DNA from: a virus
Length of the DNA: 64,000 nucleotides
Direction: 5' to 3' (one strand)
IMG/VR virus record: IMGVR_UViG_3300033145_000788
Location: 1-64,000 of that record
In this document: positions 30,711 through 46,012 of the stretch, piece by piece
Position numbering within the stretch: position 1 is the stretch's first letter
Layout of the letters: every line of letters starts with the position of its first letter
Made by a program: the position numbers and the translations under genes
The notes under the pieces: generated by a model
What the model was told of the DNA's origin: nothing
What the model saw: the letters and a program-made list of their open reading frames with translations, nothing else
Database searches by the model: none

Positions 30711-33700
30711 AACACTTTTGCCACTTACATACCCACAACGAATTTAGCTTTCTCGACGGCCTTGGAACGGCGAAACAATATGTCAGAAGGGCCAAGGAAT
30801 TGGGCTTCGGGTATCTTGCTCTCACTAACCACGGGAATGTAGATGGATTGATAAAGTTCCAAGCGGTCTGTGATGAGGAGAAGATAAAGCCGGTCCTCGG
30901 AGCCGAACTCTACATTGTCCCGGACATGAAGGAGAAAAAGAAGGGTGAGAAGCGGGGCCATATAACCCTGTTGGTCAAGGATGAGATTGGATGGAGGAAT
31001 CTCCTGCGGCTCGTCACCATCGGGAACCTTGAGGGGTTCTACAACCGGCCACGGATAGATTATAAATCCTTCATGAAGCATTGCCAGGGATTGGTGGTTA
31101 TGACAGCCTGTGTCTCCTCGTTTCTCAACATGAGAGGCGGCCAGGATTTTTTCTTGGATTTAAAGGATGAGGTCGGGGATGACCTTTATCTTGAGATAAT
31201 GCCGCACGATATAAAGGAACAGATAAGTTTGAATTTTCAATGTCTCGATCTGGCCGAGAAGTATGGAGTCTTACTGGTGGCCACGAACGATTGTCATTAT
31301 GTGATGGAGGACGATGTCGAAGCCCAGGAGGTACTCCTGGCGATAGGGACGCAGGCCAAGTGGAATGACATTGACCGGTTCAAGTTTGGCTTGACCGGAC
31401 TCCACCTGCGAACGGCGGATGAGATGGAAGCGGCCTTCGATGTTCAGGAGTTTCCCTATACGGTTTATTCTGAGGCTATGAAAGAGACTGTGGCGGTTGC
31501 GAGAAAATGCGGTGATTTCAGGATAAAGAAGCGGGAAATTTCTTTGCCGATACATCCGGAACTCAAGGGCCTGGACGAGAACGAATTCCTGAGAAACCTG
31601 TGTAATGAAAAGCTCAAGGAAAAAGGGTTGAAGGAGAAGGAATACGGCAAGCGGTTAGATAGGGAACTTGACCTCATCTGTGAGAAGGGATTTGCCCCTT
31701 ATTTCCTAATTGTTTGGGACTTGATGAGCTGGTGCTGGAAGTCTGATATAATGTCGGGGCCTGGCCGGGGGTCAGTTGGTGGTAGCCTTGTGGCTTATCT
31801 CCTTGGGATTATCCAGATTGATCCTGTTAAGTTTAACCTTCCTTTCGAGCGATTCATCGCTCAGGACAGGATTGATTATCCGGACATTGATATTGATTTT
31901 GAGGATACTAAGAAGGACATGATCCGGGACCGGCTCCGGGAACTATATGGCGGTTCCAACGTGGCCGGGATCAATACTCATCTAAGAATGAAGAATAGGG
32001 CGGTGATCCGGGACGTGTCGAGGGTCTTTGATGTGCCCCTTGGTGAGGCTGGAAGTTTAGCGAAGACGATTGACGACACGGACGATCTGAAAGATGTGTT
32101 CAAGAAAGAAAAAGTGGGCAAAATCTTTGAGAAGAAGTATCCCCAGGTGGTCAGGAATATCCTGAAGCTCCGGGGTCAAATACGGGGCCTCGGTCAGCAT
32201 CCAGCCGGGGTAATTATAAGTTCCGAAGATATTAGTTCCAACGGTCGGGCGGCCTTGAGTGATAAGGATGGAACATTGATGATCAATTGGGATGGTGAGG
32301 ATGCTGAATTTGTGGGACTGGTCAAATTTGACCTCTTGAGTCTCAAGGAAATATCGGTCCTTGCGGAAACAAAAAGGTTGATAGAACAGAATGTAGGAAG
32401 GGATATCCATTTTGAGGATGATATTCCCTTGGATGATAATGAAGTATTGAAAGATATCTCCGAGGGTAATACGGTCGGATGTTTTCAACTTGCTCAGTTT
32501 ACGACAGAGTTAATCAAGAAGATGGGAGTGGAAAAATTTAGTCATATTTCTGATGCCGTAGCGCTTGCTCGTCCGGGACCAATGAATAGTGGGATGACCA
32601 AAAAATATGTTGATCGGAAGCATGGGAGAAAGTGGGAAGCGATGCATCCATTATATGAGGAAGCCACAAAGGATACCTATGGGGTGATCGTGTACCAAGA
32701 GCAAGTTATGGAGGTCATCAACAAGGTGGCCGGGCTCGATTATTCTACGGCGGATAAGATAAGAAAGATCATAGGGAAAAAGCGAGACGTCAAGGAATTT
32801 AAGCAATTCTATGCGGCGTTCGTGGATGGCTGCCTGAAGAACAAAACCCTGAATAAGAAGGAGGCGGCTGATTTCTGGAAGGGGATGGAGAAGCATGCCG
32901 GGTATTCTTTTAACCGGGCGCATTCGGTGGAATATGCTATGATGGCGTATTGGACAGCCTGGCTCAAGCATTATTATCCGACTGAATTCCTGTGTGGTTC
33001 GTTGTCCTGCGGGGCCGAGGGTAAGAAGGATGAACTGGTTGATGAAGCCATGAGGTTGGGGTTGAAGATAATCCCGCCGAAAGTGGGGAAGTCGGATGCG
33101 TTTAAATGGATGGCGAGGGGCCGGGAGCTTTATGTTCCGTTCGTGGAGGTGAAGGGGATAGGAAAGAAGACGGCGGAGACTGCGGCCTCAGTGGGTATTG
33201 AAAAGAAAAAGAGACCGGGGTTCTTCTTGAAGAAGGTTGAATCCGTTCCGGCTAAGGGTAAGCTTGGAGTCCTCTTGCAAAGTATTGGTGCTTTTTCCGA
33301 CGATATTCCGAAGGGGATATCCGAATACTTTGATTTTGACATAGGGTCGGATTTGGGACAATATCCTCGCCTGGAAACCCTGACGAAGGGGGTCGGGAAA
33401 CCCCTGCGGGAGTTGCTCCGGGGTGAGGTAGAAGGATTGGAATTGGGGAAGAAGTTAGATGAGAAGACGAAAGGAGCTTTGGCCGATTTAAGATATGAGA
33501 TGCTATCGTGTTCCAGATGTTCCCTGAGAGACGAGTGCGATGGTCCGGTAGGCCCTTCAATTGGAACTTGGAATATGATGATATGCGGCGAGGGAGCCGG
33601 AAAGGATGAGAATCAGGAAGGGGAAGTGTTCATAGGTCGGGCTGGGAAGGAGTTGTGGAAAATTATGGCGGAGTTCAAGTTGAAGAGAAAGCTGTTTTAT

Positions 33701-34039
33701 ATTTCCAATGTGGATAAGTGCTGGCCGAGTGAGACAAAGACCCCGACCAAGGAACACATTGCAGCTTGCCGTGGGTGGCTTGACAAGGAGATTGAGATAT
33801 TGAAGCCATTCTTGATCCTCTCCCTGGGAAACATCCCCCGCTATTATTTCACCGGCGAGATATCGGGGATTAATTCCGTGAGCGGAACGACTGAATGGAA
33901 CGAGCGAGCCGGGGCTTGGATTTGCTATTCCACGCATCCGGCATCAGTCCTGCACCGGAAGAGCGAGGGAAACGTAGAATTGTTCAGGAAGGGTATCGAG
34001 AACTTCTCGGAGAAGTTAGAAACGCTGGGGGGTATATAA
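30707..34039 (+). CDS. dnaE: DNA polymerase III alpha (C-family) fused to family-4 uracil-DNA glycosylase
   Basis: 1110 residues. The N-terminal PHP domain has FCHLHTHNEFSFLDG and TNHGNVDGL. The polymerase core has GPGRGSVGGSLVAYLLGI and the catalytic triplet PDIDIDF (Asp393, 395, 397), then AGYSFNRAHSVEYAMMAYWTAWLKHYYPTEF in pieces, and an HhH motif VKGIGKKTAE near 815. After about residue 920 the usual OB/tau-binding tail is replaced by a uracil-DNA glycosylase of family 4: 4Fe-4S cysteines Cys935, 938, 1005 and 1021, CGEGAGKDENQEGEVFIGRAG, NVDKCWP, LILSLG and STHPASVLH. The fusion implies uracil surveillance at the fork. The start overlaps the methyltransferase stop. Confidence 0.9.
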   Translation: MKHFCHLHTHNEFSFLDGLGTAKQYVRRAKELGFGYLALTNHGNVDGLIKFQAVCDEEKIKPVLGAELYIVPDMKEKKKGEKRGHITLLVKDEIGWRNLLRLVTIGNLEGFYNRPRIDYKSFMKHCQGLVVMTACVSSFLNMRGGQDFFLDLKDEVGDDLYLEIMPHDIKEQISLNFQCLDLAEKYGVLLVATNDCHYVMEDDVEAQEVLLAIGTQAKWNDIDRFKFGLTGLHLRTADEMEAAFDVQEFPYTVYSEAMKETVAVARKCGDFRIKKREISLPIHPELKGLDENEFLRNLCNEKLKEKGLKEKEYGKRLDRELDLICEKGFAPYFLIVWDLMSWCWKSDIMSGPGRGSVGGSLVAYLLGIIQIDPVKFNLPFERFIAQDRIDYPDIDIDFEDTKKDMIRDRLRELYGGSNVAGINTHLRMKNRAVIRDVSRVFDVPLGEAGSLAKTIDDTDDLKDVFKKEKVGKIFEKKYPQVVRNILKLRGQIRGLGQHPAGVIISSEDISSNGRAALSDKDGTLMINWDGEDAEFVGLVKFDLLSLKEISVLAETKRLIEQNVGRDIHFEDDIPLDDNEVLKDISEGNTVGCFQLAQFTTELIKKMGVEKFSHISDAVALARPGPMNSGMTKKYVDRKHGRKWEAMHPLYEEATKDTYGVIVYQEQVMEVINKVAGLDYSTADKIRKIIGKKRDVKEFKQFYAAFVDGCLKNKTLNKKEAADFWKGMEKHAGYSFNRAHSVEYAMMAYWTAWLKHYYPTEFLCGSLSCGAEGKKDELVDEAMRLGLKIIPPKVGKSDAFKWMARGRELYVPFVEVKGIGKKTAETAASVGIEKKKRPGFFLKKVESVPAKGKLGVLLQSIGAFSDDIPKGISEYFDFDIGSDLGQYPRLETLTKGVGKPLRELLRGEVEGLELGKKLDEKTKGALADLRYEMLSCSRCSLRDECDGPVGPSIGTWNMMICGEGAGKDENQEGEVFIGRAGKELWKIMAEFKLKRKLFYISNVDKCWPSETKTPTKEHIAACRGWLDKEIEILKPFLILSLGNIPRYYFTGEISGINSVSGTTEWNERAGAWICYSTHPASVLHRKSEGNVELFRKGIENFSEKLETLGGI

Positions 34040-34053
34040 TTTTTAAGAAAAAG

Positions 34054-34089
34054 TTTAAAGGAAAAGGATTTCGTTATATAATATAGGTA
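34054..34089 (+). promoter_or_regulatory. Phage-type promoter upstream of TIGR array 1a
   Basis: TTTAAA 34054-34059, 17 nt, TATAAT 34077-34082, followed by ATAGGTA. It stands 28 nt before the first array unit and would transcribe array 1a and the Tas gene. Confidence 0.85.
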
Positions 34090-34116
34090 TGGAAGGGCTT
34101 TCGGCATAAAACAAAA

Positions 34117-34250
34117 GAAATTCAAGGAGGTTAAACGAGCCAAGAAATGAGAGAAATCTAATTCTGTTAAGCGAGCCAGGGAGTCAAAGAAACCCATCAG
34201 GGAGAAGCGAGCCAAGTACCCTAAGAAACCCAGGGAGCTCAAGCGAGAAA
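34117..34250 (+). repeat. TIGR-like array 1a (four 36-bp units)
   Basis: An 8-bp repeat (GAAACCCA type) at 34117, 34153, 34189 and 34225 alternates with an 8-bp repeat (GCGAGCCA type) at 34135, 34171, 34207 and 34243. Every gap is exactly 10 bp and variable (e.g. attctgttaa, gggagtcaaa, tcagggagaa, agtaccctaa). The period is 36 bp. The outer units are more degenerate. Most gaps end in AA, so the true variable part is about 8 nt. Two repeats per period with two spacers fits TIGR arrays, not CRISPR. Confidence 0.85.
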
Positions 34251-34303
34251 CCCAAAAGGCCGGAAACGGAGAAAGAAACTAAAAAGAAGAAAGGAAAAAC
34301 AAA

Positions 34304-35257
34304 ATGGCCAAGGTAGCATTGAAGGAAGAACTGAGGGAGATCCAGGATGGCAAATTCAAGACGACCGGGGAAATCATTCCCGAAGACAGTTTTTTATTTG
34401 ACACGCATCGCCTGACCCCGAAAGTCAAGGGTGGGACATATGGTGATATTTCTAATGTGGAGGTGGTTGATCCCGTTGAGCATATGAAGATTCACGGGAA
34501 CTTGAGAGAGCGGCCGGAGGAATTTGATAAGCTGAAGGCTATCGTTGATGACCGAGTGCAAGTGATGAAGCTTAAGAATAAGATCAACAATCAACTGAAG
34601 GCCTTTGAACGAAGGGTTGATTATTCATTGAGGGATATTTATGAGCATCTCCAAGAGGGATTGAATCGGGAGAACAAGGAACTCGGAAAGAGGGATAGGA
34701 TATTAGAGAAGGCGGTCAAGGAGATCATTCAATATGATGCGTTGGCCGCCGCTGCGTTATTAGTTCCCAATGTTGGGCCGGTCATAGTGGCTAACTGCAT
34801 TGTCTATATTGACTTAAAAAAGGCGAGGCATGCATCTAGCCTGTGGAAATACGTGGGGGTTGATAAACCTCGCCACAAGAAATATGTGAAAAGAGAATCT
34901 GGAGGAGGAAACCGAACGCTTCTAACGGTTCTATATCAAATGGCAGAGTGCCAAATGAAAGGTTATGGGCCGTATCGGGAGATATATGATCGTGAGAAAG
35001 AGAGCCGTTCTGTCTCCGAAAAAATTACCTGGAGTAGAAATACAGAAGGCAAACTGATTGAATGTGTTTGGAAGGATACTATGCCGAGTCACCGTCATGG
35101 CCATGCGCTCAGGATGGTCATAAAGCACTTCCTTGCGGACTATTGGTTTGTGGGGCGGATGCTCCAGGGTTTGCCCACGAATCCGAGTTATGCCGAGGCG
35201 ATTTTGGGGAAAGAACATCGGACGATTAGTCCCCGTGAGAGGGGGTGGAAGTTTTAG
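34304..35257 (+). CDS. Tas-like protein with HNH-like N-terminus (TasH-type)
   Basis: 317 residues. Residues 33-65 read as an HNH-like motif: D33-T-H35, K42-G-G, N51, H60, H64. Residues about 75-140 are helical. From about 145 a helix-hairpin-helix Nop/Transposase_20-type domain follows (LVPNVGPVIVANCI near 151-164, KYVGVDKPRH, GGGNRTLLTVLYQMAE, then a His-rich C-terminus). This resembles the IS110 transposase C-terminal domain, to which Tas proteins are related. It lacks the IS110 DEDD domain. Flanked on both sides by TIGR arrays 1a and 1b, it is inferred to be an RNA-guided DNA-binding or cutting effector. Confidence 0.8.
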   Translation: MAKVALKEELREIQDGKFKTTGEIIPEDSFLFDTHRLTPKVKGGTYGDISNVEVVDPVEHMKIHGNLRERPEEFDKLKAIVDDRVQVMKLKNKINNQLKAFERRVDYSLRDIYEHLQEGLNRENKELGKRDRILEKAVKEIIQYDALAAAALLVPNVGPVIVANCIVYIDLKKARHASSLWKYVGVDKPRHKKYVKRESGGGNRTLLTVLYQMAECQMKGYGPYREIYDREKESRSVSEKITWSRNTEGKLIECVWKDTMPSHRHGHALRMVIKHFLADYWFVGRMLQGLPTNPSYAEAILGKEHRTISPRERGWKF

Positions 35258-35280
35258 AATGAAAAAGTTAAGATGGAGAA

Positions 35281-35630
35281 GAAACCCATCCCACTGAAGC
35301 GAGCTAACGAACCAAAGAAACCCACTGATTATAAGCGAGCCAAGGTGATAAAGAAACCCAGTTAGCGGAAGCGAGCTACGGTTAGCAAGAAAGCCATACA
35401 AGAAAAGCGAGTTAAATTATATAAGAAATTCGGTAATGAAAAGCAAGCCATTTCTGGGAAGGAATCCATTATCGGCAAGCGAGCCAAAAAAAATAAGAAA
35501 CCCACATCGAGGAAGTGAGCTACAAAAAAAAAGAAAACCATTGATTAGAAGCGAGCTATGGCCCAAAAGAAAACCAGTCTACAAAAGCGAGCCATAGACC
35601 TCAAGAAACCCAAGGTCAAGAAGCGAATTT
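35281..35630 (+). repeat. TIGR-like array 1b (ten 36-bp units)
   Basis: Ten units at exact 36-bp spacing, from 35281 to 35605. First repeat GAAACCCA (variants GAAAGCCA, GAAAACCA, GGAATCCA); second repeat GCGAGCYA (variants GCGAGTTA, GCAAGCCA, GTGAGCTA, final GCGAATTT). The 10-bp blocks all differ, such as tcccactgaa, acgaaccaaa, ctgattataa and gttagcggaa, and all end in AA. Same orientation and repeats as array 1a on the other side of the Tas gene. Confidence 0.92.
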
Positions 35631-35644
35631 TTCTTAAGAAAAAG

Positions 35645-35680
35645 TTTAAAAATAAAGCGTCTTATTATATAATATAGGTA
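35645..35680 (+). promoter_or_regulatory. Phage-type promoter
   Basis: TTTAAA 35645-35650, 17 nt, TATAAT 35668-35673 within TTATTATATAATATAGGTA, 15 nt after array 1b. Drives the SSB/RecA operon and possibly array 2a by read-through. Confidence 0.85.
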
Positions 35681-35693
35681 TAAGGAGAGAATT

Positions 35694-36248
35694 GTGGCAA
35701 AGAATTTGGATTATTCAGAGGAGATCAAGGTTGATCGTTACAATCTTGAGGTATTGTTAGAAGGCCAAGCTGAATTATATGGTAAGTATGCAAAGGCCTG
35801 GGCTGAGGCCGTGGCCGAGAGGGAAAAATTGGCTCGAAGGATCAAGATAGAGAAAGACAAGTTAAAAGAAATAGAAGCAGAGTTAGATGCTATGGTGCGG
35901 GTGGATTGGGAAGAATATGGGTTCAAGAAGGCGCCAACTGAATCGGCAATTAGGAGTTGGATTATATTGCAATCAGAATATAAGATTCAGCAGAAAGAGA
36001 TTTACCGGCTTGATTTGGAGAAGATAGAATGCTTTCGGATTGAGAATCGGCTTGACGGGGCCAAATACGCTTTTGATCATCGAAAGTCTTCCCTTGAAGG
36101 TTTGACCAAATTGATGCTCGGCGGGTACTATTCCAAACCCCACGTCCCGCAGGAGATGAAGGATGAATCCGAGGGCCTGAAGCGGGAGGGTGAGGAAAAG
36201 AAAATCAGGGAGTCTGTTAAACGAAGAAAATTAAAGAGGGATAAATAG
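35694..36248 (+). CDS. Coiled-coil protein of the recombination operon
   Basis: 184 residues from GTG 35694. Predominantly helical with a long charged coiled coil (about 30-75) and a basic C-terminus (KKIRESVKRRKLKRDK). First gene of the operon with SSB and RecA, so a recombination or replication accessory role is plausible. No family recognised. Confidence 0.55.
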   Translation: MAKNLDYSEEIKVDRYNLEVLLEGQAELYGKYAKAWAEAVAEREKLARRIKIEKDKLKEIEAELDAMVRVDWEEYGFKKAPTESAIRSWIILQSEYKIQQKEIYRLDLEKIECFRIENRLDGAKYAFDHRKSSLEGLTKLMLGGYYSKPHVPQEMKDESEGLKREGEEKKIRESVKRRKLKRDK

Positions 36249-36249
36249 A

Positions 36250-36396
36250 ATGGAATGGTGGAAGATAGTCTTGGGTGTTCCGGTCTTATTATTCCTGATT
36301 GCATACCTGATTCATGTCATAGTCGGGAGTGCGGCGGACGCCTATTTCAAGGCAAAACTAAAATACCATGAGAGGAGAAAAGAGAATGAAACGTGA
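36250..36396 (+). CDS. Single-TM small protein, 48 aa
   Basis: ATG 36250 one base after the upstream stop. One membrane segment (IVLGVPVLLFLIAYLIHVIV), charged C-terminus. It overlaps the SSB start by 11 nt. Confidence 0.5.
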   Translation: MEWWKIVLGVPVLLFLIAYLIHVIVGSAADAYFKAKLKYHERRKENET

Positions 36397-37516
36397 TCGA
36401 GAGAAAGACAGGGAACAACTGAGGGAACGGGAGAATCAGAGCCGGGAGACGAAGGACGACGGTGTGTTCGGGTTCTCGTCTTATTTCACAGTGCCAGAGG
36501 GAGTGGATATATGGTATCCAAAGTATCCCAGCAAGGTCAATGATTCTGAGCAATTTCAATTTGACATTGTCCCCTTTGTGGCCGGTGATAATTATCCGAC
36601 TCGGATTGGCAAGGGTCCGTCCAATGTCAAGGCTGGCCACATGGTGTATGTGCTTGATGTGTGGATACACAAGAACGTCGGACCGGAGAATCTTCAGACG
36701 GTCTGTCCGTTGAAGACTTATGGTTTGCGTTGCCCGATTTGTGAGCATGGCCAGGATTTGCTCGCTGATGAGGATGACAAGGGAGAAAGAAAAAAAATAG
36801 TCAAGGAGAAATTCCCTAAGCGTCGGGTCATGTACAATGTGATTGTCCGGGATGGTGGTGAGGAGGAAGACAAGGGGATTCAGGTTTTTGAATTCAGTCA
36901 TTATTGGATGGAGAAGGAGCTTCAAAATTTAAAGGATCTTCCAGATAATCGAAACGTCTTTTACGCCGACCCTATTGACGGAAGAACGATTTGGTTTAAG
37001 TTGACGAAAACGGGGACGGATAAGATGGAAAATGGGCCGTACACCTTTATTGAACGGGATTATGAGATAACCGAGGAGGAGCTGGACGAGGCGGTTTGCT
37101 TGGATGAATTATTGATTCCGCATTCCTATGATGAGATTCGTGATCTGTATTGGGGCGTTGATGCTGAGGAGGAAGCTGTTGAGGAAGAGAATGAGAATGT
37201 AGATGAACCCGGTAACTCCGAGCCCCCGTCCCGGCTGATCCGGAAACGGGATATGGAGGAACCGGTGGAGGAAGAGGAAGAAGAATCAGAGGAATCAGAG
37301 GAACCGGAAGGTGGGTGCCCCATCAATCTGAGGTGGGGCTATGACCATAACGAGTACGAGAACTGCGATACCTGCGATAAGTATGACGACTGTGGGGCCG
37401 AGAAGGAGAGGATTAAGAAGGCTGAGCAGGCCAAGAAGAGGAAGAAAGCCGAAGCCGCCAAACCGATTCGCAAACCCAAACCGAGGGCGAGGGGATTCAA
37501 GAGGGGTGAGAAATGA
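36386..37516 (+). CDS. gp32-like single-stranded DNA-binding protein
   Basis: 376 residues; ATG 36386 preferred because AGGAG lies between it and the upstream ATG 36368. The OB-fold region includes the zinc motif CPLKTYGLRCPICEHG (about 113-128), typical of T4 gp32-type SSBs. An acidic region (about 250-310) corresponds to the partner-binding tail. Unusually, a second Cys cluster (CPINLRWGYD ... CDTCDKYDDC) and a basic tail follow the acidic part. It coats ssDNA during replication and recombination and neighbours RecA. Confidence 0.8.
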   Translation: MKRDREKDREQLRERENQSRETKDDGVFGFSSYFTVPEGVDIWYPKYPSKVNDSEQFQFDIVPFVAGDNYPTRIGKGPSNVKAGHMVYVLDVWIHKNVGPENLQTVCPLKTYGLRCPICEHGQDLLADEDDKGERKKIVKEKFPKRRVMYNVIVRDGGEEEDKGIQVFEFSHYWMEKELQNLKDLPDNRNVFYADPIDGRTIWFKLTKTGTDKMENGPYTFIERDYEITEEELDEAVCLDELLIPHSYDEIRDLYWGVDAEEEAVEEENENVDEPGNSEPPSRLIRKRDMEEPVEEEEEESEESEEPEGGCPINLRWGYDHNEYENCDTCDKYDDCGAEKERIKKAEQAKKRKKAEAAKPIRKPKPRARGFKRGEK

Positions 37517-37725
37517 TGAGATATGTTATTAAAGGCCAAGAAGATGAGGAAGTGATGGAGTTTTCGTTGGAAAAAGGGGACGACGGAGAAATTTTCCTAG
37601 CGGCTAATGGATATTATCTTTTAGATATACATCCCGAAAGAGGGATTGGTCTTATTGAGAGCGTCCCGGAATCATTAGGTCTTGATGTAGATGAAGAAGG
37701 AAAAATTAAAGTAGTAAACAACTAA
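37513..37725 (+). CDS. Small acidic protein, 70 aa
   Basis: ATG 37513 overlaps the SSB stop. Acidic, beta-rich (NGYYLLDIHPERGIGLI). No family recognised. Confidence 0.5.
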   Translation: MMRYVIKGQEDEEVMEFSLEKGDDGEIFLAANGYYLLDIHPERGIGLIESVPESLGLDVDEEGKIKVVNN

Positions 37726-37731
37726 CCATCT

Positions 37732-37850
37732 TGCGCCGGCGGGGTGGCGTCAACCATCCTTGTTCAGAGGAGGAGTTGCTTATTGTGTTACTGTTAGCGT
37801 TAATTCACCGTACGGAAAAGGGTTCGTTGGGAGCCCTTCCCGTCGGCGCA
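37732..37850 (+). ncRNA. Structured element in front of recA
   Basis: TGCGCCGGCGGG (37732-37743) pairs with CCCGTCGGCGCA (37839-37850), 12 bp with one G-U, enclosing 95 nt with smaller helices (e.g. AAGGG / CCCTT near 37818 and 37834). No ORF with a start signal lies inside. It ends 14 nt before the RecA ATG and could be a leader regulating RecA or an independent RNA. Confidence 0.5.
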
Positions 37851-37864
37851 TATAAGGATATTGA

Positions 37865-38902
37865 ATGTCTGAGAAATTCAAGAGAGTAGCCAAACAGGTT
37901 GAGGAGGAAGTGGTGAGCCCGGTTGAATCCGACGGGATCGAGGTCCGGTGGGACCGGGGCGTCGTCAGCACAGGCTCAACCCTGCTCGATTTGGCGATCT
38001 CCGGTGGCCGGGTCCGAGGAGGCGGTATACCGGGAGGGCTTATCGTTGAGATATTCGGACCGTCCGGGTTCGGGAAGACGGCGTTGTTGATGGAGATATG
38101 TAGTAGTGCCCAGGCAAGGGGCGGTGATATCTTTGTCGCTGACCCGGAGGCCCGGCTTGATAAGGAATATTCCAGAATTTATGGCGTACATATAAATCAG
38201 GATAAATATTCACGGCCAAATACTGTTACGGAAATGTTTGAACATATTAAAGAATGGAAGCCCGAACGAAAGAAAGAAAGGACAGTTTGCGTGTATGGCG
38301 GCGATAGTCTAGCTGCTTTGTCAACACAGATGGAGCTGGAGGATTCTGATCAGTATGGGATGCGGCGTGCAAAGGAATTCAGCGAATCTATGAGAAAGGT
38401 TTGTCGTTTGATAGCCAATGAAAACTGGTTGCTAGTCCTGACGAACCAGGAACGGGAGGGGCCGAGCGGTGTGTCCACCCCCGGTGGCCGGGCGATAGGG
38501 TACTATTCGTCTTTGCGGATTCGGGTTGCTAGTGGTTATCCCTCGTGGAAGATTAAAAAGAAAGTTAAAGTTGAGGGCAAGGATGTTGAGCAGATTGTCG
38601 GGATTAAATCCCAATGTACGATTAAAAAAAGTAGTGTTGATAACCCTTATCGGGAGGCGGATGTATCAATTATTTTTCAATACGGAATTGATGATCTCCG
38701 GGGAAATCTACAATATTGTAAGGACATGACTGGGGGGACTAAATATGCTTGTCAGGACAAGGAATATCAAGGGATTGATAAGGCGATAGGGTATATTGAA
38801 AGCAATGGACAGGCGGAATGGTTGAGGGAACGAACAATTAGTTTATGGGAAGAAGTTCAGGAACGGTTTAAGATTCAGAGGATGGAGAAGGTGAGGAAGT
38901 GA
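37865..38902 (+). CDS. RecA/UvsX recombinase
   Basis: 345 residues, the usual RecA length. TGSTLLDLAISGG, Walker A GPSGFGKT (65-72), a Walker B-like GGDSLAAL near 141-148 and the L2-adjacent TNQ followed by STPGGRAIGYYSSLRIRV are visible. It drives strand exchange for recombination-dependent replication, with the UvsW-like helicase and SbcCD. Its stop codon lies inside the first degenerate repeat of TIGR array 2a. Confidence 0.9.
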   Translation: MSEKFKRVAKQVEEEVVSPVESDGIEVRWDRGVVSTGSTLLDLAISGGRVRGGGIPGGLIVEIFGPSGFGKTALLMEICSSAQARGGDIFVADPEARLDKEYSRIYGVHINQDKYSRPNTVTEMFEHIKEWKPERKKERTVCVYGGDSLAALSTQMELEDSDQYGMRRAKEFSESMRKVCRLIANENWLLVLTNQEREGPSGVSTPGGRAIGYYSSLRIRVASGYPSWKIKKKVKVEGKDVEQIVGIKSQCTIKKSSVDNPYREADVSIIFQYGIDDLRGNLQYCKDMTGGTKYACQDKEYQGIDKAIGYIESNGQAEWLRERTISLWEEVQERFKIQRMEKVRK

Positions 38903-39071
38903 TAGCTAGGTACTGTTTGAAATCTAATCTCCACTTGCGAGCTACGGTCGGAGTGAAATCTATTCCGGCATTGCGAGCTATAAACTTTTTGAAATCTATA
39001 AGGAACCTGCGAGCTATAAACTTTTTGAAATCTATTAAATGGTTGCGCACTACAATTCTCATTGAAGCCTA
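38901..39071 (+). repeat. TIGR-like array 2a (four 36-bp units)
   Basis: GAAATCTA at 38919, 38955, 38991 and 39027 alternates with GCGAGCTA at 38937, 38973, 39009 and 39045 (the last GCGCACTA), all gaps 10 bp. Degenerate end repeats are GATAGCTA at 38901 and GAAGCCTA at 39064. Gaps end in T. The block taaacttttt occurs twice (38981 and 39017). The first repeat differs from array 1 (TCT for CCC). Confidence 0.9.
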
Positions 39072-39211
39072 ATAAGAGATTGTGTTCAGGAAGGAGATGA
39101 TCAAGGCAAAAAGAATCAAAGAAGCGGCAAGGGGCACGGGATGATCTACCGAGAGACCTTATGATTATCCCCTTGGTAATAACAATTAATCATAGATAGG
39201 AGCGAGAAACT

Positions 39212-40345
39212 ATGAAAGAAGAAAAAAAGTTCCACCGTCCACAGCGCCATAAGCTGTTTGTGGATTACGCCAACGAAAAGGAAGTTGTGTATCTCGAACT
39301 TGAAAATGATGAGATATACCGATGCACCCCGATAGGATTTAAAAAAGTGGCCCTTGCTTCGAGGGAGATTTATTCCGAACCTATACCCATGAACCGGGCG
39401 AAGCCTCTGCTTGAAAAGGGAGTGAAGTTTTATCGATGCCGGACTACGGCCACCTCTGAACTCAGGGATAAACTTGGCCTGGAGAAGTCGGATGAGAATG
39501 ACGCTTTGGTCATTCGGGAATTATATAAACGTGATCCGGGGAACTTTCGGGAATGGACGGGGGAATCCCGGTTAGGTGCTCTCTATGCGATTTATAAACA
39601 AACACAAAAAGAGAAAGTTGCCGTTGGAAACAGGGACTACGCCCTCGGCGGTGACGAGATTATCTCCGACATCAAGAAGCGGCAGGATTCCATCTTGACC
39701 GTGATAGAGAAAAAGATGAAGGAAGAACTGGATAAATACGTGGTCACCCCTTGGCTTCTCTCCATTAAGGGGTTGTCCGTGGTTACGGCGGCGGGGATAG
39801 TTTTCTGGACCGAGAAAATTGGGATAGAGAACTTTGGTAATCCGAGTAAATTAAAAAAATACTTCGGTTTGCACGTCAAGGATGGCAAGTCGGTCCGGGG
39901 CGGCGATGTTTATGGAACAGATCAGAAATTAGATTTCCCTGTTATGGCGAGAGCCCTTATGATAGGGGTCGTCGCTGACCTGTTCGTGAAGCAGCGGTCA
40001 CCGGTTTACCGGAAGATATACGACCGTCATAAAGCGGAACAAACTGAGCGGGTCTTTGAGCCAGGCTTCCTAATGAAAGAGTTCAATGGCCGGGGTCCCC
40101 GGGTCAAGGGTCGGGCCAACCGATACGGGCCGGAGGACACCCGACTCGGGGCGGCCCACGCCAATAATCGGGCGATGAGAAAGATGATGCAAATATTCCT
40201 GATTCATCTGTGGGTGATCTGGCGTCAGTTGCTCGGACTCCCGACCCCGTTGGGATATGCCGAGAACCATTTGAAACATCGGTTTCCGCCCCTTCCGCCG
40301 AACGTGCCGAAGGAGCTTGAACCATTTGAGTGGGTGAAGGAATAG
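39212..40345 (+). CDS. Tas-like protein with RuvC/IS110-like N-terminus (TasR-type)
   Basis: 377 residues. The N-terminal domain has strand LFVDYAN (Asp18) and the IS110-type motif KSDENDALVIREL with Asp94 and Asp97 (DxxDA), so a DEDD/RuvC-like nuclease is likely; the second acidic residue is not clear. A helical linker (about 125-175) precedes the Nop/Transposase_20-like domain: LLSIKGLSVVTAAGI (near 182), KLKKYFGLHVKDGK, and ANNRAMRKMMQIFLIHLW. It is flanked by arrays 2a and 2b. A lone IS110 transposase is the alternative, but no insertion ends or second copy are seen. Confidence 0.8.
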   Translation: MKEEKKFHRPQRHKLFVDYANEKEVVYLELENDEIYRCTPIGFKKVALASREIYSEPIPMNRAKPLLEKGVKFYRCRTTATSELRDKLGLEKSDENDALVIRELYKRDPGNFREWTGESRLGALYAIYKQTQKEKVAVGNRDYALGGDEIISDIKKRQDSILTVIEKKMKEELDKYVVTPWLLSIKGLSVVTAAGIVFWTEKIGIENFGNPSKLKKYFGLHVKDGKSVRGGDVYGTDQKLDFPVMARALMIGVVADLFVKQRSPVYRKIYDRHKAEQTERVFEPGFLMKEFNGRGPRVKGRANRYGPEDTRLGAAHANNRAMRKMMQIFLIHLWVIWRQLLGLPTPLGYAENHLKHRFPPLPPNVPKELEPFEWVKE

Positions 40346-40381
40346 TATGACTGGGAGGGGGATTATGGCTAATTTAAAGTT

Positions 40382-40725
40382 GAAATCTATCCCCGGCCTG
40401 CGAATTGGTGATGATTCCCCGCTCCTTAAAAAGGCTAGAGAAGGGCTGAAATCTAAGCCAGCCCTGCGAGCTAGTCGGGTTCTGAAATCTAGAAGTTGAT
40501 TGCGAGCCATGGACATCCTGAAATCTACTCTTATTTTGCGAGCTACAGCCTTTTTGAAATCTAGAAATTGATTGCGAGCTATAAAACCAATGAAATCTAG
40601 GACCCCTTTGCAAGCTACTGAACGGCTGAAATCTATCAATCCGGTGCGAGCTAGCTGTCCATTGAAATCTATTTCTGCACTGCGAGCTACAGGGCAATTG
40701 AAATCTAAATGTCTTTTGTGAAAGA
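40382..40725 (+). repeat. TIGR-like array 2b (eight regular units plus one isolated)
   Basis: GAAATCTA at 40448, 40484, 40520, 40556, 40592, 40628, 40664 and 40700 alternates with GCGAGCTA (variants GCGAGCCA, GCAAGCTA) 18 bp later. The period is exactly 36 bp. An isolated GAAATCTA/GCGAATTG pair at 40382-40407 is separated by irregular sequence. All 10-bp blocks end in T. Two are near-identical (gaagttgatt 40492, gaaattgatt 40564). The last unit runs into the start of the exonuclease gene. Confidence 0.92.
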
Positions 40726-40732
40726 AAAAACT

Positions 40733-41587
40733 ATGAAAAATCTACTTGTTGACAGTAATTATCTTTGTTACAGATCAAAATTCCGCATGCCGGATTTATC
40801 TCACGACGAGAAGCTGACTTCAATAATTTTCGGCTTCTTGTCTCAAGTTTTCGAGCTGGCGAACCGGTTCAATACTAACCGATTTGTATTTGCCTGGGAT
40901 TCCGGGAAAAGTCTACGAAGAAGCCTTTACCCGGAGTATAAGGCGAAGAGGCATGCGGATAAAACAGATGAGGAAAGGGAGAAGGACAGAATCGCATACG
41001 CACAGTTCGACGAACTCAGAAAAGAGGTCTTGCCGGCCCTCGGATTTAAGAATGTCTTTTACCAAGATGGATATGAATCCGATGACTTGATTGCTTGGCT
41101 AGTGATGGAAAATGAGGAGGATTTTACTGTTATTTCGTCGGATAATGATCTTTGGCAGGTTCTTGATTACTGTGACATGTATGATCCGAGAACCAAGGAG
41201 ATGACCACTAGGCAGACCTTTATGGAGCAATGGCAGATTGAACCGGTTGTCTGGCTTGCCGTCAAGGCCGTCGCCGGTTGCCCGACAGACAATATTGCCG
41301 GAGTACCCGGTGTCGGCGAGAAGACGGCAATCAAATTTCTAAAGGAACAATTGAAATATGAAAGCAAAGTCCGCCGGAGAATCGTAAGTGCGGAGTGTCA
41401 GCAAATAATTGAGAGGAATCGCAAGCTGGTTAAGTTGCCGATGGATGGGGTAGAGCCCATGACCTTGAGGAAGGATGAGTTTACCAGGAAAGCCTTTATG
41501 GATATGTGTCACCGATATGATTTCCGTTCCTTTCTCTTGGGGAGTAGATTGGGTCAATGGTTAGATCAATTTTGCGAAGGAGAATGA
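40733..41587 (+). CDS. 5'-3' exonuclease / flap endonuclease (PolI N-terminal family)
   Basis: 284 residues from ATG 40733; an in-frame ATG at 40709 lies inside the last array unit. Signature residues: LLVDSNYL (catalytic Asp), FAWDSGKSLRRSLYPEYKAKR (Asp plus basic arch), GYESDDLIAWL and ISSDNDLWQ (acidic metal ligands), and the HhH GVPGVGEKTAIKFL. It removes RNA primers and flaps during replication. Confidence 0.88.
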   Translation: MKNLLVDSNYLCYRSKFRMPDLSHDEKLTSIIFGFLSQVFELANRFNTNRFVFAWDSGKSLRRSLYPEYKAKRHADKTDEEREKDRIAYAQFDELRKEVLPALGFKNVFYQDGYESDDLIAWLVMENEEDFTVISSDNDLWQVLDYCDMYDPRTKEMTTRQTFMEQWQIEPVVWLAVKAVAGCPTDNIAGVPGVGEKTAIKFLKEQLKYESKVRRRIVSAECQQIIERNRKLVKLPMDGVEPMTLRKDEFTRKAFMDMCHRYDFRSFLLGSRLGQWLDQFCEGE

Positions 41588-41588
41588 A

Positions 41589-41915
41589 ATGAAAGAGACA
41601 AAAATAGAAACAAGAATCGTGGAATTTTCTGAGGAGATCGTCAATAGTCTACCAATAAATAAGATAGACGATGAATTATTGCCTTTGATTTTGGCGATGA
41701 ATCAGGCGGGAATTAAGACCCGAAGTTGTTGTTCTGGTCATACTATAAATAAGGCCTCGGTTACCATTGATATAGAGAGTCTTGATTCTTTCTTTGTTCA
41801 CGATGATTCTCTCACTCTTTATTTTAAATGCCCTATTGCAAAGGTGGAGCCGGGTTATGAAGATAAGATTAAATATCCGCCAGCGGGAAGGGGAATTCAA
41901 TGGAGTTGGACATAG
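41589..41915 (+). CDS. Phage protein with TRSCCSGH motif, 108 aa
   Basis: Coupled to the exonuclease. The motif GIKTRSCCSGH at about 40-50 occurs in small phage proteins of unknown function. The remainder is beta-rich. No catalytic role can be assigned. Confidence 0.6.
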   Translation: MKETKIETRIVEFSEEIVNSLPINKIDDELLPLILAMNQAGIKTRSCCSGHTINKASVTIDIESLDSFFVHDDSLTLYFKCPIAKVEPGYEDKIKYPPAGRGIQWSWT

Positions 41916-41924
41916 GAGCCTAAA

Positions 41925-42806
41925 ATGAAAACAGGAGCGGAGTGTTTAGAGTGGCTTAGGGGGAAGTATGGGAATGAATTTGCTAAGGATCTCCAGGCCC
42001 TGATAGGTCACCCCGACCCCGGTTGGACATTTCCCCGATTTCAAGTAAAGTGGGGTACGTCTCCCCGGCAGAGGTTTTTCCGGATATTTGGCCAGGAGGC
42101 TTATGGAATGGCTTGTTACCGAAAAAACGGCCAGAGGAGCGGGGAAGCCTATCGAGCCCTCCTTAAAAAGAGAAAGGGGCCTGAATTTATCACAGACATG
42201 GACGCCTTGCTCGAACGGCCTTATTGGACTTTGACCGGATTCGGGGAGAAGTGGGGTTTGTCAAAGGAGCGGGCTCGCCAGATATTCCTCAAGTTGCACG
42301 GCAAGCCCTATGGCGATGTGATATCCCTGAAGAAGAAAAGGGTTGAGGAGGATTTAAAGGAACTTCCTTGTCAAAACGATCCCAGGGTTAAGATGGCGGA
42401 ATGGGACAAATCCAATCTGCTTTACGGTTCGGCTTATGCCCAGATGCTCGTTTTTGACAAATGCAAGGAACTGGGGTTTGACGTCCAGGTTCCTTGTTCC
42501 GGTATGAATCGATTGGTAATTAACGGATATATGGTGATTCCGAAGCAGTGTTCGGAACGGCATCTTTTTTCTCCGGTCGGTGGGTTGAAATATTATCGCA
42601 TCCATGCCACCGTGAACCAGATCAAGGAGTGTGATTTTATGATTGCTTATGTCGAACCTTGGGATTGCTTTTATGTTTTTCCTAAGAAGGAATTTCAGAG
42701 AGTTGGGGTCTATCTGAGGGAGGAGGACGTAAATACCTATTGTACTTCCCGTGGCCATAATTATCAGGCGTACCGGGAAGCCTGGGGACAATTGAGGAGG
42801 GAATAA
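41925..42806 (+). CDS. Protein with two HTH repeats and a putative nuclease-like C-terminus
   Basis: 293 residues. Two related segments, WTFPRFQVKWGTSPRQRFFR (about 33-52) and WTLTGFGEKWGLSKERARQI (about 103-122), each followed by a G-x-x-YG element, look like duplicated sigma-region-4-type HTHs. The C-terminal half (AQMLVFDKCKELGFDVQVP and DFMIAYVEPWDCFYVFP) has an alpha-beta layout reminiscent of PD-(D/E)xK-type homing or restriction nucleases, without a clear catalytic triad. Could be a regulator or a homing-type nuclease. Confidence 0.5.
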   Translation: MKTGAECLEWLRGKYGNEFAKDLQALIGHPDPGWTFPRFQVKWGTSPRQRFFRIFGQEAYGMACYRKNGQRSGEAYRALLKKRKGPEFITDMDALLERPYWTLTGFGEKWGLSKERARQIFLKLHGKPYGDVISLKKKRVEEDLKELPCQNDPRVKMAEWDKSNLLYGSAYAQMLVFDKCKELGFDVQVPCSGMNRLVINGYMVIPKQCSERHLFSPVGGLKYYRIHATVNQIKECDFMIAYVEPWDCFYVFPKKEFQRVGVYLREEDVNTYCTSRGHNYQAYREAWGQLRRE

Positions 42807-43030
42807 TGATAAAGGAAGTAGTGATAGTTTATGTTGATGATTGGGAGGGAATCTATATTGATGGAAAACTTACAAATCAAAACCATTATCTATCAACCCA
42901 CGATATACTTACCGCTGTAGAAATACCTTATACAATGAAACAGGTAAGTTATGAGTGGATGAAAGGAAAACCGAGCTTTCCAAAGGATCTTAAAGATGTA
43001 GTATTAATAGAGGAAATAAAGGATGCCTAA
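42806..43030 (+). CDS. Small protein, 74 aa, unknown
   Basis: Start overlaps the upstream stop. Beta-rich N-terminal half (VIVYVDDWEGIYIDGKL). No family recognised. Overlaps the next gene. Confidence 0.5.
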   Translation: MIKEVVIVYVDDWEGIYIDGKLTNQNHYLSTHDILTAVEIPYTMKQVSYEWMKGKPSFPKDLKDVVLIEEIKDA

Positions 43031-43580
43031 AGGGGCCAGAAACGAACGGAAGAAGTGCCGGGACTGGTCATTGTGGTGGTCCGAGGGTCTTGATATCAAT
43101 CCGCCGAAGGATGATATATTCTACCGGACGGCTGGCTCCGGAAGTAGGGCCAAGTCCAGGGCGAAAAGGGGCAAGGATACCCACGGTTCTTATGGGGACA
43201 TGGGTGCCCTCGACCCCGTGGGTGAGCCATTGATTAAGGCTTTGACATTTGAGTTCAAGAAAGGATACAACAAGGAGCTAGATTTGCTCTCCCTGCTCGA
43301 CTCAAGGGGTAAGAAGCCTCTCCTGAAACAATTCCTGGAGCAGGTGTGCGAAGATGCCGAGTTGGCCGGGAACGATCCGGCCTTGGTGATCCACCGGGAT
43401 TACCACTTGCCGGTGATTGTGATTTTAGCTATTCTAATTGATGAGATTCATTGGTATGTGGGTGGTTTTAAGAATGATCGCTTTGATTTTTGGTATATGG
43501 ATAAGGATTTTACCATGATGCGGCTCAAAGATTTCTTTGAGTGGTGTAATCCGCATTTCTTTGTGAGAAGGGGTTTTTAG
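43023..43580 (+). CDS. PD-(D/E)xK nuclease-like protein
   Basis: 185 residues. The segment YRTAGSGSRAKSRAKRG, GDMGALDP and LTFEFKKGYN fits the PD-(D/E)xK core (Asp, then Glu-x-Lys) of Holliday-junction-resolvase-like nucleases. A hydrophobic strand LPVIVILAIL and an aromatic C-terminus follow. It sits between recombination genes, so junction resolution or DNA end processing is plausible. Confidence 0.6.
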   Translation: MPKGARNERKKCRDWSLWWSEGLDINPPKDDIFYRTAGSGSRAKSRAKRGKDTHGSYGDMGALDPVGEPLIKALTFEFKKGYNKELDLLSLLDSRGKKPLLKQFLEQVCEDAELAGNDPALVIHRDYHLPVIVILAILIDEIHWYVGGFKNDRFDFWYMDKDFTMMRLKDFFEWCNPHFFVRRGF

Positions 43581-43582
43581 AA

Positions 43583-43876
43583 ATGACTGAACGATTTGGG
43601 ACATGGAATTTTATAAGACCGGATTGGCGGATAGTTACAAATGGGAAGAAATTTATGATTCAATGTTGTTGGGGGATAAATGAATGGAAAGGTTTTGAAT
43701 TTACGACAACTAATATCTCAGGCGAATTTGACGATTATCTTGGAGCCAAGAAGATTTTTGATCATCTTGTAGAGTTATATGGATGTGTGTATGACGTATT
43801 GGAAGACCAGGAAAAGAAAAAGTTGTTAGATGATGATATCGGCTGGGACGATCCGATTGTCGTGACGGAATTGTAA
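43583..43876 (+). CDS. Unknown protein, 97 aa
   Basis: ATG 43583 two bases after the upstream stop. Trp/Phe-rich N-terminus, acidic C-terminus (LLDDDIGWDDPIVVTEL). Its final base overlaps the SbcC-like ATG. No family recognised. Confidence 0.5.
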   Translation: MTERFGTWNFIRPDWRIVTNGKKFMIQCCWGINEWKGFEFTTTNISGEFDDYLGAKKIFDHLVELYGCVYDVLEDQEKKKLLDDDIGWDDPIVVTEL

Positions 43877-44991
43877 TGCTCAAGTCTGTTAAAATAACAA
43901 ATTTCCAAAAGCAGAGAGATCTTGAACTGGAACTCGTCCCCGGCGTCAACGTGCTGGCCGGGAGGAGTGATCTCGGTAAGTCGGCGGTCGTCAGGGCCGT
44001 AGGATGGGCCCTGAGGAACAGGCCACAGGGATTCGGATTCCGATACGATCCGGAGATAGCCAGGGACGGGGGGAAGAAGCTCAAAAAGGATGATCTGACA
44101 TCGGTTAATCTCTCCTTTGACAATGGGGAAATCTCTCGACAAAGGAATGAAAAATCAATCAACTCCTATATCGTGAACGGCGAGATGCTCGAAGCCCTCC
44201 GAGGCGATGTTCCAGAGGAGGTGTCTGGCCTGATAAATATAGAGTCGTGCTGCTTCCAGGACCAGCACGATCCATATTTCCTTCTCCAGGATACTCCGGG
44301 GGAGGTGGCCCGGAAGCTGAATGAGGTTTCCGGTCTTGACCTGATAAGCCGGGTGATTAAGACCATTAATTCTATGGCTGCTAAAGCGGAAGCCGAAGCC
44401 GCCATGGCAAGGAAGACGGCCGGCGAGAAAGACGGCCGGATACAGGAGCTTGTTTTCCTGGATAAGGTAATTCCTTTGGCCGAAAAGATACAGGCGGCTC
44501 TCGATGAGAGGGATAAATTATCTGCCCAGGAAAAAGAATTGAATGAGATTATAGGGTCACTTGAGGAGATTGACTCAGACTTGGCTGAAACAAGTGGCTG
44601 GCTGGGGATAGAAGAGCCTTTTTTAAGAGTTTGGGCCGGATTGGATAGGTTATATAGGGCTAAGGAAGAACTCTCGGATTTGGACGATCTAATCACCAGG
44701 GCGACCGATGTGGAGGAGTCCCTGGAGAACGAGCGGGCTTGGCTGGCAATAGAGGATGCCGCTAACAAGGTGGCCGGGATACTGGAAAGGAAGAAAGGGG
44801 TTGAGAGAGAATGGGGAGAGCTAGAATCCGTGATACGCAGGTTTGATGATAATGAAGATATGCTGGAGCCGAAGAGGTTTGAGTTGGAGGGATTGCGGCG
44901 GGCCTATGCCGCCCTTTTATTGGAGGCCGGAATCTGCCCTTGGTGCGGGAGTGAGGTTGAAAGGGCGGGATTGGAGGAACATGTGTTATGA
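43876..44991 (+). CDS. SbcC/Rad50-like ATPase, N-terminal half
   Basis: 371 residues. It begins MLKSVKITNFQKQRDLELEL with Walker A GRSDLGKSAV (about 29-38), as in SMC/Rad50 proteins. A Q-loop-like FQDQHDPYFLLQ and long coiled coil follow. It ends in CPWC (Cys354-Cys357), the zinc hook that normally sits mid-protein in Rad50/SbcC. The second half of the ATPase (signature and Walker B) is encoded separately at 47185. With the SbcD-like nuclease at 45101 it would process DNA ends. Confidence 0.82.
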   Translation: MLKSVKITNFQKQRDLELELVPGVNVLAGRSDLGKSAVVRAVGWALRNRPQGFGFRYDPEIARDGGKKLKKDDLTSVNLSFDNGEISRQRNEKSINSYIVNGEMLEALRGDVPEEVSGLINIESCCFQDQHDPYFLLQDTPGEVARKLNEVSGLDLISRVIKTINSMAAKAEAEAAMARKTAGEKDGRIQELVFLDKVIPLAEKIQAALDERDKLSAQEKELNEIIGSLEEIDSDLAETSGWLGIEEPFLRVWAGLDRLYRAKEELSDLDDLITRATDVEESLENERAWLAIEDAANKVAGILERKKGVEREWGELESVIRRFDDNEDMLEPKRFELEGLRRAYAALLLEAGICPWCGSEVERAGLEEHVL

Positions 44992-45104
44992 TGGGAACTG
45001 AGCTTATAGATTATTTCTATTGGCAGGGTGCTGGATTTGGAGCCGCTGTTATATTAGTGATTATCATAGCATTTGATCTTATAGAATTATTGAGGGATAA
45101 ATGA
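44988..45104 (+). CDS. Single-TM small protein, 38 aa
   Basis: ATG 44988 overlaps the SbcC-half stop and its stop overlaps the SbcD ATG. One membrane segment (GAAVILVIIIAFDLI). Its place between the two subunits is odd; function unknown. Confidence 0.5.
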   Translation: MMGTELIDYFYWQGAGFGAAVILVIIIAFDLIELLRDK

Positions 45105-46012
45105 AAATCCTCGCCATGCCAGATCTCCATGCCAGGGAGACCGCTCCGAGATGCCGGACGGATGATTATCTTGCGGCGCTTATGGGGAAGCTGGATTGGG
45201 CCGGTAAGTTATCTCAGGACGAGGCGGTTGATGTGGTGGTCTTCCCCGGAGATATATTCGATTCCTGTCGGGCAAGCGATAACCTGAAAAGGTTGATGAT
45301 TGATTGCTTTCATTATTCTTTTGACGATGTTATCGGGGTGGCCGGTCAGCATGACCAGAGATATCATACGAAAGACTTGAATAATACGCCTCTTGGCGTT
45401 TTGCAGGCAGCGGGGGCGATGGCGGTAATCGGAGAATCTGGATTGGAACGGTGGGTGAGAGAGGGTTGCCGGTTTTATGGAACCTCCTGGGGGGAGGATA
45501 TCCCTGAAATAAAATCGGAGGGATTTAACATTCTTGTTATTCATAAGATGATAATCAAAGGATTAAGGGTCTGGCCGGGACAGACCGATTATTCATTTGC
45601 CAAGCGGTTGCTTGAGAAGCATGATTATGACCTGATCATATCGGGAGACAATCACCAGTTTTTCATGGAGGAGTATGAGGGCAGATGGTTGATAAATTGC
45701 GGCTCTCTGATGAGGCAATCAATAAATCAAGTGAAGTACCATCCGGCCGTGGTGATATTTGATACTGAGATTCGGCAACCGGAAACATATGAAATCCCGG
45801 TCAAGCCGATAGAGGAGGTAATGAAATTGGAAGAAGTAGAGGACGAGAAGGAGAGAAATGAAAAGTTAGAGGAGTTTGTGTCATCGCTGGGGTCTGATGG
45901 CGAGCATATCGAATTGGATTTTTTGAGCAACCTGAAAGCTACCATCCGGAATTCCGGTCTTGGCATTGATGTTGAGGACGTGATCTGGGAGGCGGTGGGA
46001 AAGGAGGAATGA
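45101..46012 (+). CDS. SbcD/Mre11-like nuclease
   Basis: 303 residues with calcineurin-like phosphoesterase motifs: MPDLHARE, VFPGDIFDS, GVAGQHDQRY (the GNHD equivalent), ILVIHKM and SGDNHQFF, then INCGSLMR. This is the usual SbcD/T4 gp47 layout. It is expected to act with the split SbcC halves as a Mn-dependent nuclease on DNA ends and hairpins. The charged C-terminal helix (EEVEDEKERNEKLEEF) could contact the coiled coil. Confidence 0.85.
   Translation: MKILAMPDLHARETAPRCRTDDYLAALMGKLDWAGKLSQDEAVDVVVFPGDIFDSCRASDNLKRLMIDCFHYSFDDVIGVAGQHDQRYHTKDLNNTPLGVLQAAGAMAVIGESGLERWVREGCRFYGTSWGEDIPEIKSEGFNILVIHKMIIKGLRVWPGQTDYSFAKRLLEKHDYDLIISGDNHQFFMEEYEGRWLINCGSLMRQSINQVKYHPAVVIFDTEIRQPETYEIPVKPIEEVMKLEEVEDEKERNEKLEEFVSSLGSDGEHIELDFLSNLKATIRNSGLGIDVEDVIWEAVGKEE

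What the first reader, a model, noticed from the sequence alone, without database searches (positions are those of the whole stretch)
38901..40725. TIGR-Tas-like locus 2: RuvC/IS110-type Tas gene with its own arrays
Seen: GAAATCTA and GCGAGCTA alternate with 10-bp variable blocks at exactly 36-bp period, 4 units before and 8 regular units after a 377-residue gene. That gene has Asp18, an IS110-like DxxDA motif (Asp94, Asp97) and a Nop/Transposase_20-like domain from about residue 175. Known: TasR proteins pair a RuvC-like nuclease with the Nop-like domain. Inferred: a second, TasR-like system beside the HNH type.
Basis: partly seen in the sequence, partly recalled or inferred. Interest (0 to 1): 0.94.

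Follow-up and report, generated by a model that had tools for sequence, protein, structure and literature searches.

The report
Phage TIGR-TasR, second Tas system
A roughly 99-kb tailed phage carries a compact RNA-guided DNA-cutting system of the recently described TIGR-TasR kind, next to a separate TIGR-TasH system, both inserted in its replication and recombination genes; no other Tas-bearing virus record checked here has two.

Summary
A 377-aa gene (39212-40345) is flanked by two alternating 9-nt repeats, TGAAATCTA (loop) and TGCGAGCTA (edge), with 9-nt spacers and a 36-nt period: 4 clean units plus 1 decayed unit upstream, a lone unit just after the gene, 8 units downstream. The protein is a TasR: it matches TaTasR (PDB 9mty) at E=1.9e-33, and its AlphaFold2 model matches 9mty best (TM 0.81). 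The RuvC D-E-D-D residues (D18, E56, D94, D97) are conserved in all TasRs compared. It is a new, divergent member (37% identity to TaTasR) of a known family (Faure et al. 2025).

The setting is unusual. Of 46 other Tas-bearing virus records scanned, each has one Tas gene; this record has two classes 4 kb apart. About 80 phages share the surrounding DnaE-SSB-RecA-exonuclease-SbcCD module, and 37 show RecA then exonuclease with no Tas detected between, so both Tas loci look like accessory insertions. No target of its guides was found in the phage's own 99 kb or in related virus sequence. Natural targets and biological role remain unknown.

The parts
38904..39052 (+). Upstream TIGR array: 5'-truncated edge (AGCTA) and 4 units; edge TGCGAGCTA, loop TGAAATCTA, 9-nt spacers; the last edge is degenerate (TGCGCACTA)
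   Evidence: 36-nt spacing exact, 0 in 100 shuffles
39053..39084 (+). Probable decayed fifth unit: 10-nt spacer, loop-like TGAAGCCTA, 9-nt spacer, TGTG
   Evidence: two mismatches to the loop repeat; inference
39212..40345 (+). TasR gene, 377 aa
   Evidence: phmmer to 9mty E=1.9e-33; model TM 0.81 to 9mty; NF052498 93.1 bits
39251..39556 (+). RuvC-like nuclease domain (residues about 14-115) with D18, E56, D94, D97
   Evidence: all four invariant in 4 TasR sequences; D18/E56 correspond to D11/E43 of TaTasR; strand-helix order of the predicted model
39569..40246 (+). Coiled coil and Nop (RNA-binding) domain, residues about 120-345, with a poorly modelled insertion at about 283-312 that TaTasR lacks
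40367..40403 (+). Solo TIGR unit: GGCTA, spacer ATTTAAAGT, loop TGAAATCTA, spacer TCCCCGGCC, TGCGA
40432..40721 (+). Downstream TIGR array: 5'-truncated edge, 8 units, 3'-truncated edge (TGTGA)
34304..35257 (+). Neighbouring TasH gene (HNH-Nop), the other TIGR system of this phage
   Evidence: 48% identical to the Salicola phage CGphi29 TasH; E=2.8e-90 to the solved TasH
34133..34247 (+). TasH upstream array, 3 units, repeats AAGCGAGCCA / AAGAAACCCA, 8-nt spacers, 36-nt period
35271..35632 (+). TasH downstream array, 10 units

Best explanation
This is a complete TIGR-TasR system carried by a tailed phage as a second, independent Tas system beside a TasH. The intergenic arrays are transcribed within the recA-tas-exonuclease operon and cut in the middle of the edge repeat into 36-nt tigRNAs (about 5'-AGCUA-spacerA-UGAAAUCUA-spacerB-UGCG-3'). 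A TasR dimer binds each tigRNA through its Nop domains, which read the UG...CUA box D/C pairs. [quoted passage not shown] Shown here: the array architecture, the protein identity, the intact DEDD set, the absence of self-targets, and the accessory placement of the genes. Inferred from the characterised TaTasR: processing, targeting and cleavage. Most likely role (weakly supported): cutting rival or co-infecting mobile DNA.
For: Array: exact 36-nt period, 9-nt repeats with UG/CUA boxes in both repeats, an edge repeat able to form the extra C-G pair, an A-rich loop repeat, truncated edges at the array ends. These match the TIGR description in PMC12045711. Box C in edge and loop covaries across about 60 related arrays: CTA/CTA 5, CTA/CCA 3, CCA/CTA 0, CCA/CCA 51, Fisher p=1e-5. 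Protein; the Nop-domain tree places it with TasRs. No match to its own 99 kb above the shuffled control. Setting: 37 relatives have RecA then exonuclease with no Tas detected between, and 4 have DnaE directly before w35694 without TasH.
Against: Expression, processing and cleavage cannot be shown from sequence. The NCBIfam score is just under its curated cut-off (93.1 against 100). No terminator was found directly after the arrays, unlike typical TIGR arrays, which suggests an operon transcript. The TasR clade support is moderate (93/84). No natural target was found, so the proposed role is untested.
Confidence: 0.88

Rival explanations
1. It is an IS110-family transposase, or a domesticated one, and the repeats are unrelated tandem repeats.
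For: It shares the fold and a weak Transposase_20 match. Foldseek also finds IS621/ISCro4 (TM 0.53-0.66). The AU test does not reject joining IS110 in the Nop tree (p=0.31).
Against: IS110 model 33 bits of a 140-bit cut-off, Tas model 93 of 100. Best sequence and structure match is TaTasR by many orders of magnitude. TIGR arrays on both sides. No other IS110 match in the record.
Confidence: 0.03
2. It is a decaying TIGR system: the gene is intact but the arrays are losing function, while TasH is the working system.
For: One upstream edge is TGCGCACTA followed by a decayed fifth unit; a solo unit is cut off from the main array; two units share spacer A, and two B spacers differ by one base.
Against: Eleven or more units keep perfect or near-perfect repeats, the ORF is complete with all four catalytic acids, and the TasH repeats are more degenerate than the TasR ones.
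Confidence: 0.1
3. TasR cuts, but its targets are sites in the host chromosome (shutting down replication or host immunity) rather than rival phages.
For: No targets in the phage's own genome or in about 2.7 Mb of phage DNA. One guide matches phage-borne dnaB helicase genes exactly with a 2-bp gap.
Against: The dnaB match is within the number I expect by chance for a collection of that size. The host is unknown, so nothing could be tested.
Confidence: 0.3
4. RNA-guided homing: TasR breaks Tas-less alleles of related phages and the neighbouring RecA/SSB/exonuclease module copies the Tas locus in.
For: Both Tas loci, and a TasA in relative L242, sit inside one conserved recombination module whose Tas-free form is common.
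Against: No tigRNA matches the Tas-free module of about 80 relatives above control, though these are too diverged (45-59% RecA protein identity) for a strong test.
Confidence: 0.1

Closest known systems
TaTasR of Thermoproteota archaeon LB_CRA_1 (Faure et al. 2025, PMC12045711; PDB 9mty)
   Same: RuvC + coiled coil + Nop architecture; four acidic residues; 36-nt dual-repeat arrays with UG box D
   Different: 37% identity; box C is CUA, not CCA; 377 aa with an insertion at about 283-312; borne by a tailed phage; no terminator found after the arrays
TasRs in IMG/VR contigs 3300045738_001443 (L065), 3300020197_002141 (L108) and 3300020198_000076 (L118)
   Same: Full-length TasR with DEDD set and TGAAACCCA/TGCGAGCCA arrays
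   Different: 34-35% identical to the window protein; no second Tas found in their records (18.8-38 kb); L108 and L118 proteins are identical
SpTasH of Salicola phage CGphi29
   Same: Same array logic (36-nt unit, CGAG edge core); its homologue is the other Tas gene of this phage
   Different: HNH instead of RuvC; AAG box D; 8-nt spacers
IS110 transposases (IS621, ISCro4)
   Same: RuvC-like DEDD plus Nop-like RNA-binding domain
   Different: Single bridge RNA and transposon ends instead of guide arrays; weak sequence similarity

Membership tests
TIGR-Tas (dual-repeat) | Two alternating 8-12-nt repeats separated by about 9-nt spacers, 36-nt unit, beside the gene | tested here: met
TIGR-Tas (dual-repeat) | Box D and box C motifs in both edge and loop repeats, covarying | tested here: met
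   UG...CUA in both repeats; across related arrays box C covaries, p=1e-5
TIGR-Tas (dual-repeat) | Arrays begin and end with truncated edge repeats | tested here: met
   AGCTA at 38904-38908, GGCTA and TGCGA around the solo unit, AGGCTA 40432-40437, TGTGA 40717-40721
TIGR-Tas (dual-repeat) | Rho-independent terminator after the array (typical, not defining) | tested here: not met
   none found directly after the arrays
TIGR-Tas (dual-repeat) | Tas protein with Nop domain and coiled coil | tested here: met
TIGR-Tas (dual-repeat) | NCBIfam NF052498 curated score (100 bits; a naming threshold, not a biological feature) | tested here: inconclusive
   93.1 bits, E=2.3e-26, just under the cut-off; the TasH of this phage scores 90.3
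TasR | N-terminal RuvC domain with four conserved acidic residues | tested here: met
   D18, E56, D94, D97 invariant; D18 corresponds to catalytic D11 of TaTasR
TasR | Groups with TasR in the Nop-domain tree | tested here: inconclusive
   TasR clade 93/84, in 92% of bootstrap trees; AU p=0.31 for joining IS110
TasR | Bound 36-nt tigRNAs and guided double-strand cleavage | not testable with these tools
   needs expression and biochemistry
IS110 transposase | IS110 family score over cut-off | tested here: not met
   33.3 bits against 140; 22 bits in the genome search
IS110 transposase | Bridge RNA and transposon ends around the gene | tested here: inconclusive
   arrays occupy both flanks; no Rfam hit in 28500-46000; no terminal repeats flanking the gene; no other IS110 match in the record; short ends cannot be excluded

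The most novel reading that the evidence does not exclude
The phage runs a two-enzyme RNA-guided arsenal, TasH and TasR with different box D motifs and spacer lengths (so probably separate guide pools), embedded in its recombination module. Guided breaks with 3' overhangs would then be exploited by the adjacent RecA/SSB/exonuclease to replace rival DNA or to spread the Tas loci, a form of RNA-guided homing.
Probability: 0.12. Interest if true: 0.85.

Novelty: new member of a known kind. Interest (0 to 1): 0.5.

Why it matters
TIGR-Tas was described only in 2025 and its natural role and targets are open questions. A phage with two Tas classes 4 kb apart, set in a replication-recombination module whose Tas-free form can be seen in dozens of relatives, is a defined system for asking what the guides target, how arrays arise, and whether the two enzymes share guides. 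It also adds a divergent RuvC-type Tas nuclease from a phage; my IMG/VR scans turned up TasR on only three other contigs, two of them with identical proteins.

Tried and rejected
Self-targeting: the best hits of 13 TasR and 13 TasH tigRNAs in the 99-kb genome do not exceed re-paired spacers. Targets in TIGR-bearing phages, RecA-module relatives and all held loci (2.7 Mb, 756 tigRNAs): no excess over shuffles or wrong-orientation controls once the loci fetched for guide R2 itself are set aside. Exact scan of IMG/VR for one guide (R2): 3 contigs, two of them closely related dnaB genes, within my chance estimate, so not claimed. Scans for TasR by single protein or a two-row alignment found nothing in viral contigs; the array motif itself worked better. 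One WOR-3 TasR (L028) is split by a frame change and has no regular array. Other Nop-domain matches were TasA or TasH. No Rfam family and no PADLOC family matches. Plasmids: no match to the TasR relative P0002. Spacer A/B complementarity within tigRNAs is not above shuffles.

Full report
Observation. The window is bases 1-64000 of a 98,976-bp virus record. The record encodes a portal, head and tail proteins, a tape measure and a large replication module, i.e. a tailed phage. Around a 377-aa ORF at 39212-40345, the repeats TGAAATCTA and TGCGAGCTA alternate with 9-nt spacers at an exact 36-nt period. Eight perfect loop-spacer-edge pairs occur in the window against none in 100 dinucleotide shuffles. 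I add a solo unit at 40367-40403 and a decayed fifth upstream unit, so 14 units in all. The arrays fill the intergenic spaces: the upstream one starts 2 nt after the recA stop, and the downstream one ends just before the exonuclease start.

Identity of the arrays. Faure et al. (PMC12045711) define dual-repeat TIGR arrays by alternating edge and loop repeats, about 9-nt spacers, 36-nt units, truncated edges at the ends, UG (box D) and CCA (box C) in both repeats with covariation, an extra pair in the edge repeat and an A-rich loop repeat. Here edge UG-C-GA-G-CUA can form the extra C-G pair, and loop UG-AAAU-CUA is A-rich. All sequence features are met except the usual terminator. A scan of IMG/VR for TGAAAYCYA-N9-TGCGAGCYA returned 66 stretches, many with long arrays. 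Across them the box C change C to U tends to occur in loop and edge together (Fisher p=1e-5; the scan pattern itself allowed both letters in both repeats).

Identity of the protein. phmmer finds the solved TaTasR (9mty) at E=1.9e-33, with 37% identity over the aligned part. Profile scores are TaTasR 249 bits, TasH 218, IS621 32. NCBIfam TIGR_Tas scores 93.1 bits (cut-off 100) against IS110 33.3 (cut-off 140). The AlphaFold2 model (mean pLDDT 82) has the RuvC strand-helix order followed by the coiled coil and Nop domain. Foldseek ranks 9mty first (TM 0.81 by target length, E=8e-18), then IS621/ISCro4 and TasH. D18, E56, D94 and D97 are invariant in the four TasR sequences compared. D18 corresponds to D11 of TaTasR, the residue whose mutation abolishes cleavage (PMC12045711). 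In the Nop-domain tree the four TasRs form one group at 93/84 support, apart from IS110 (100/100) and TasH. An AU test does not reject this TasR joining IS110 (p=0.31), so the deepest placement rests on the scores and architecture rather than the tree.

Setting. TasH at 34304-35257 has its own arrays with AAGCGAGCCA/AAGAAACCCA repeats and 8-nt spacers. The two genes are 4 kb apart. A profile search of 49 other virus records with Tas genes or TIGR arrays found one Tas gene in each of 46 (two pieces of one gene in G029) and none in three; the record studied here has two. Many of those records are fragments, so this is a sample rather than a census. A RecA-based survey of 80 relatives shows a conserved order DnaE - w35694 - SSB - RecA - exonuclease - w43023 - SbcC - SbcD. 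In 37 of them both RecA and exonuclease are present in that order with no Tas match between; in 4, DnaE is followed directly by w35694. One relative (L242) has a TasA with arrays elsewhere in the same module, and two TasH phages (G005, G013) carry TasH beside SSB or the exonuclease. Both Tas loci of this phage are therefore best read as accessory insertions. The colinear module on both sides also argues against an assembly chimera.

Mechanism. Inferred from TaTasR: transcription with the operon, processing in the edge repeat, dimer loading, dual-strand pairing and cleavage at the fifth base after box C with 8-nt 3' overhangs. The UG against AAG box D and the 9-nt against 8-nt spacers suggest that TasR and TasH use separate guides; this is untested.

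Targets. I searched A + 0-2 nt + reverse complement of B for the guides in the phage's own genome, 1.4 Mb of Tas-bearing and related phages, the RecA relatives, and 756 guides of these array families against 2.7 Mb. None exceeded re-paired or wrong-orientation controls. One guide scanned against all of IMG/VR hit three contigs, two being near-identical dnaB genes, within chance by my estimate. So the guides show no match to the phage itself, and what they do target is open.

Verdict.

Noticed in passing
L160, L161, L162 (IMG/VR 3300028809_000013, 3300033551_000020, 3300028809_000012); L161:5374-6660: A Tas-like Nop protein of 426-429 aa with an N-terminal RNA polymerase alpha-CTD/helix-hairpin-helix-like domain (PF03118, 28.7 bits against 23.8 cut-off) and array-like repeats downstream: not one of the TasA/TasR/TasH architectures, possibly an RNA-guided transcription regulator.
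   Followed up: partly
L171:1100-2196 (Mycobacterium phage Euphoria NC_023726, gp70): Mycobacteriophage genes annotated as transposase or hypothetical (76 Mycobacterium phage records matched) are TasA-like Nop proteins. In Euphoria the upstream gap holds long hairpins (CCCCGGTAAAC...GTTTACCGGG) like a stem-loop TIGR array: cultured phages in which targets could be sought.
   Followed up: partly
IMG/VR 3300036863_000086 (L062, L085, L103, L107): A 72-kb viral contig with more than 110 TIGR units spread over four regions and a single detected Tas gene.
   Followed up: no
window 29049-30710 (+) and 29538-30152 (-): A DNA methyltransferase ORF carries an insertion of about 300 residues that encodes an HNH endonuclease on the opposite strand, looking like a mobile HNH gene inserted in frame.
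   Followed up: no
L010:12571-15735 (record about 94470-97634): The tape-measure ORF has, from residue about 235, a segment matching phage thymidylate synthase and ribonucleotide reductase families, which suggests an intein.
   Followed up: no
window 34151-34160: The first unit of the TasH array has loop GAGAAATCTA instead of AAGAAACCCA, resembling the TasR loop TGAAATCTA; chance or exchange between arrays.
   Followed up: no
L242:10650-12100: A TasA gene with arrays on both sides inserted between a w43023 homologue and SbcC in the same replication-recombination module.
   Followed up: partly
L028:7977-8916 (candidate division WOR-3, JAGLZA010000026.1): A TasR-like gene split by a frame change after the RuvC domain, without a regular 36-nt array.
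   Followed up: partly
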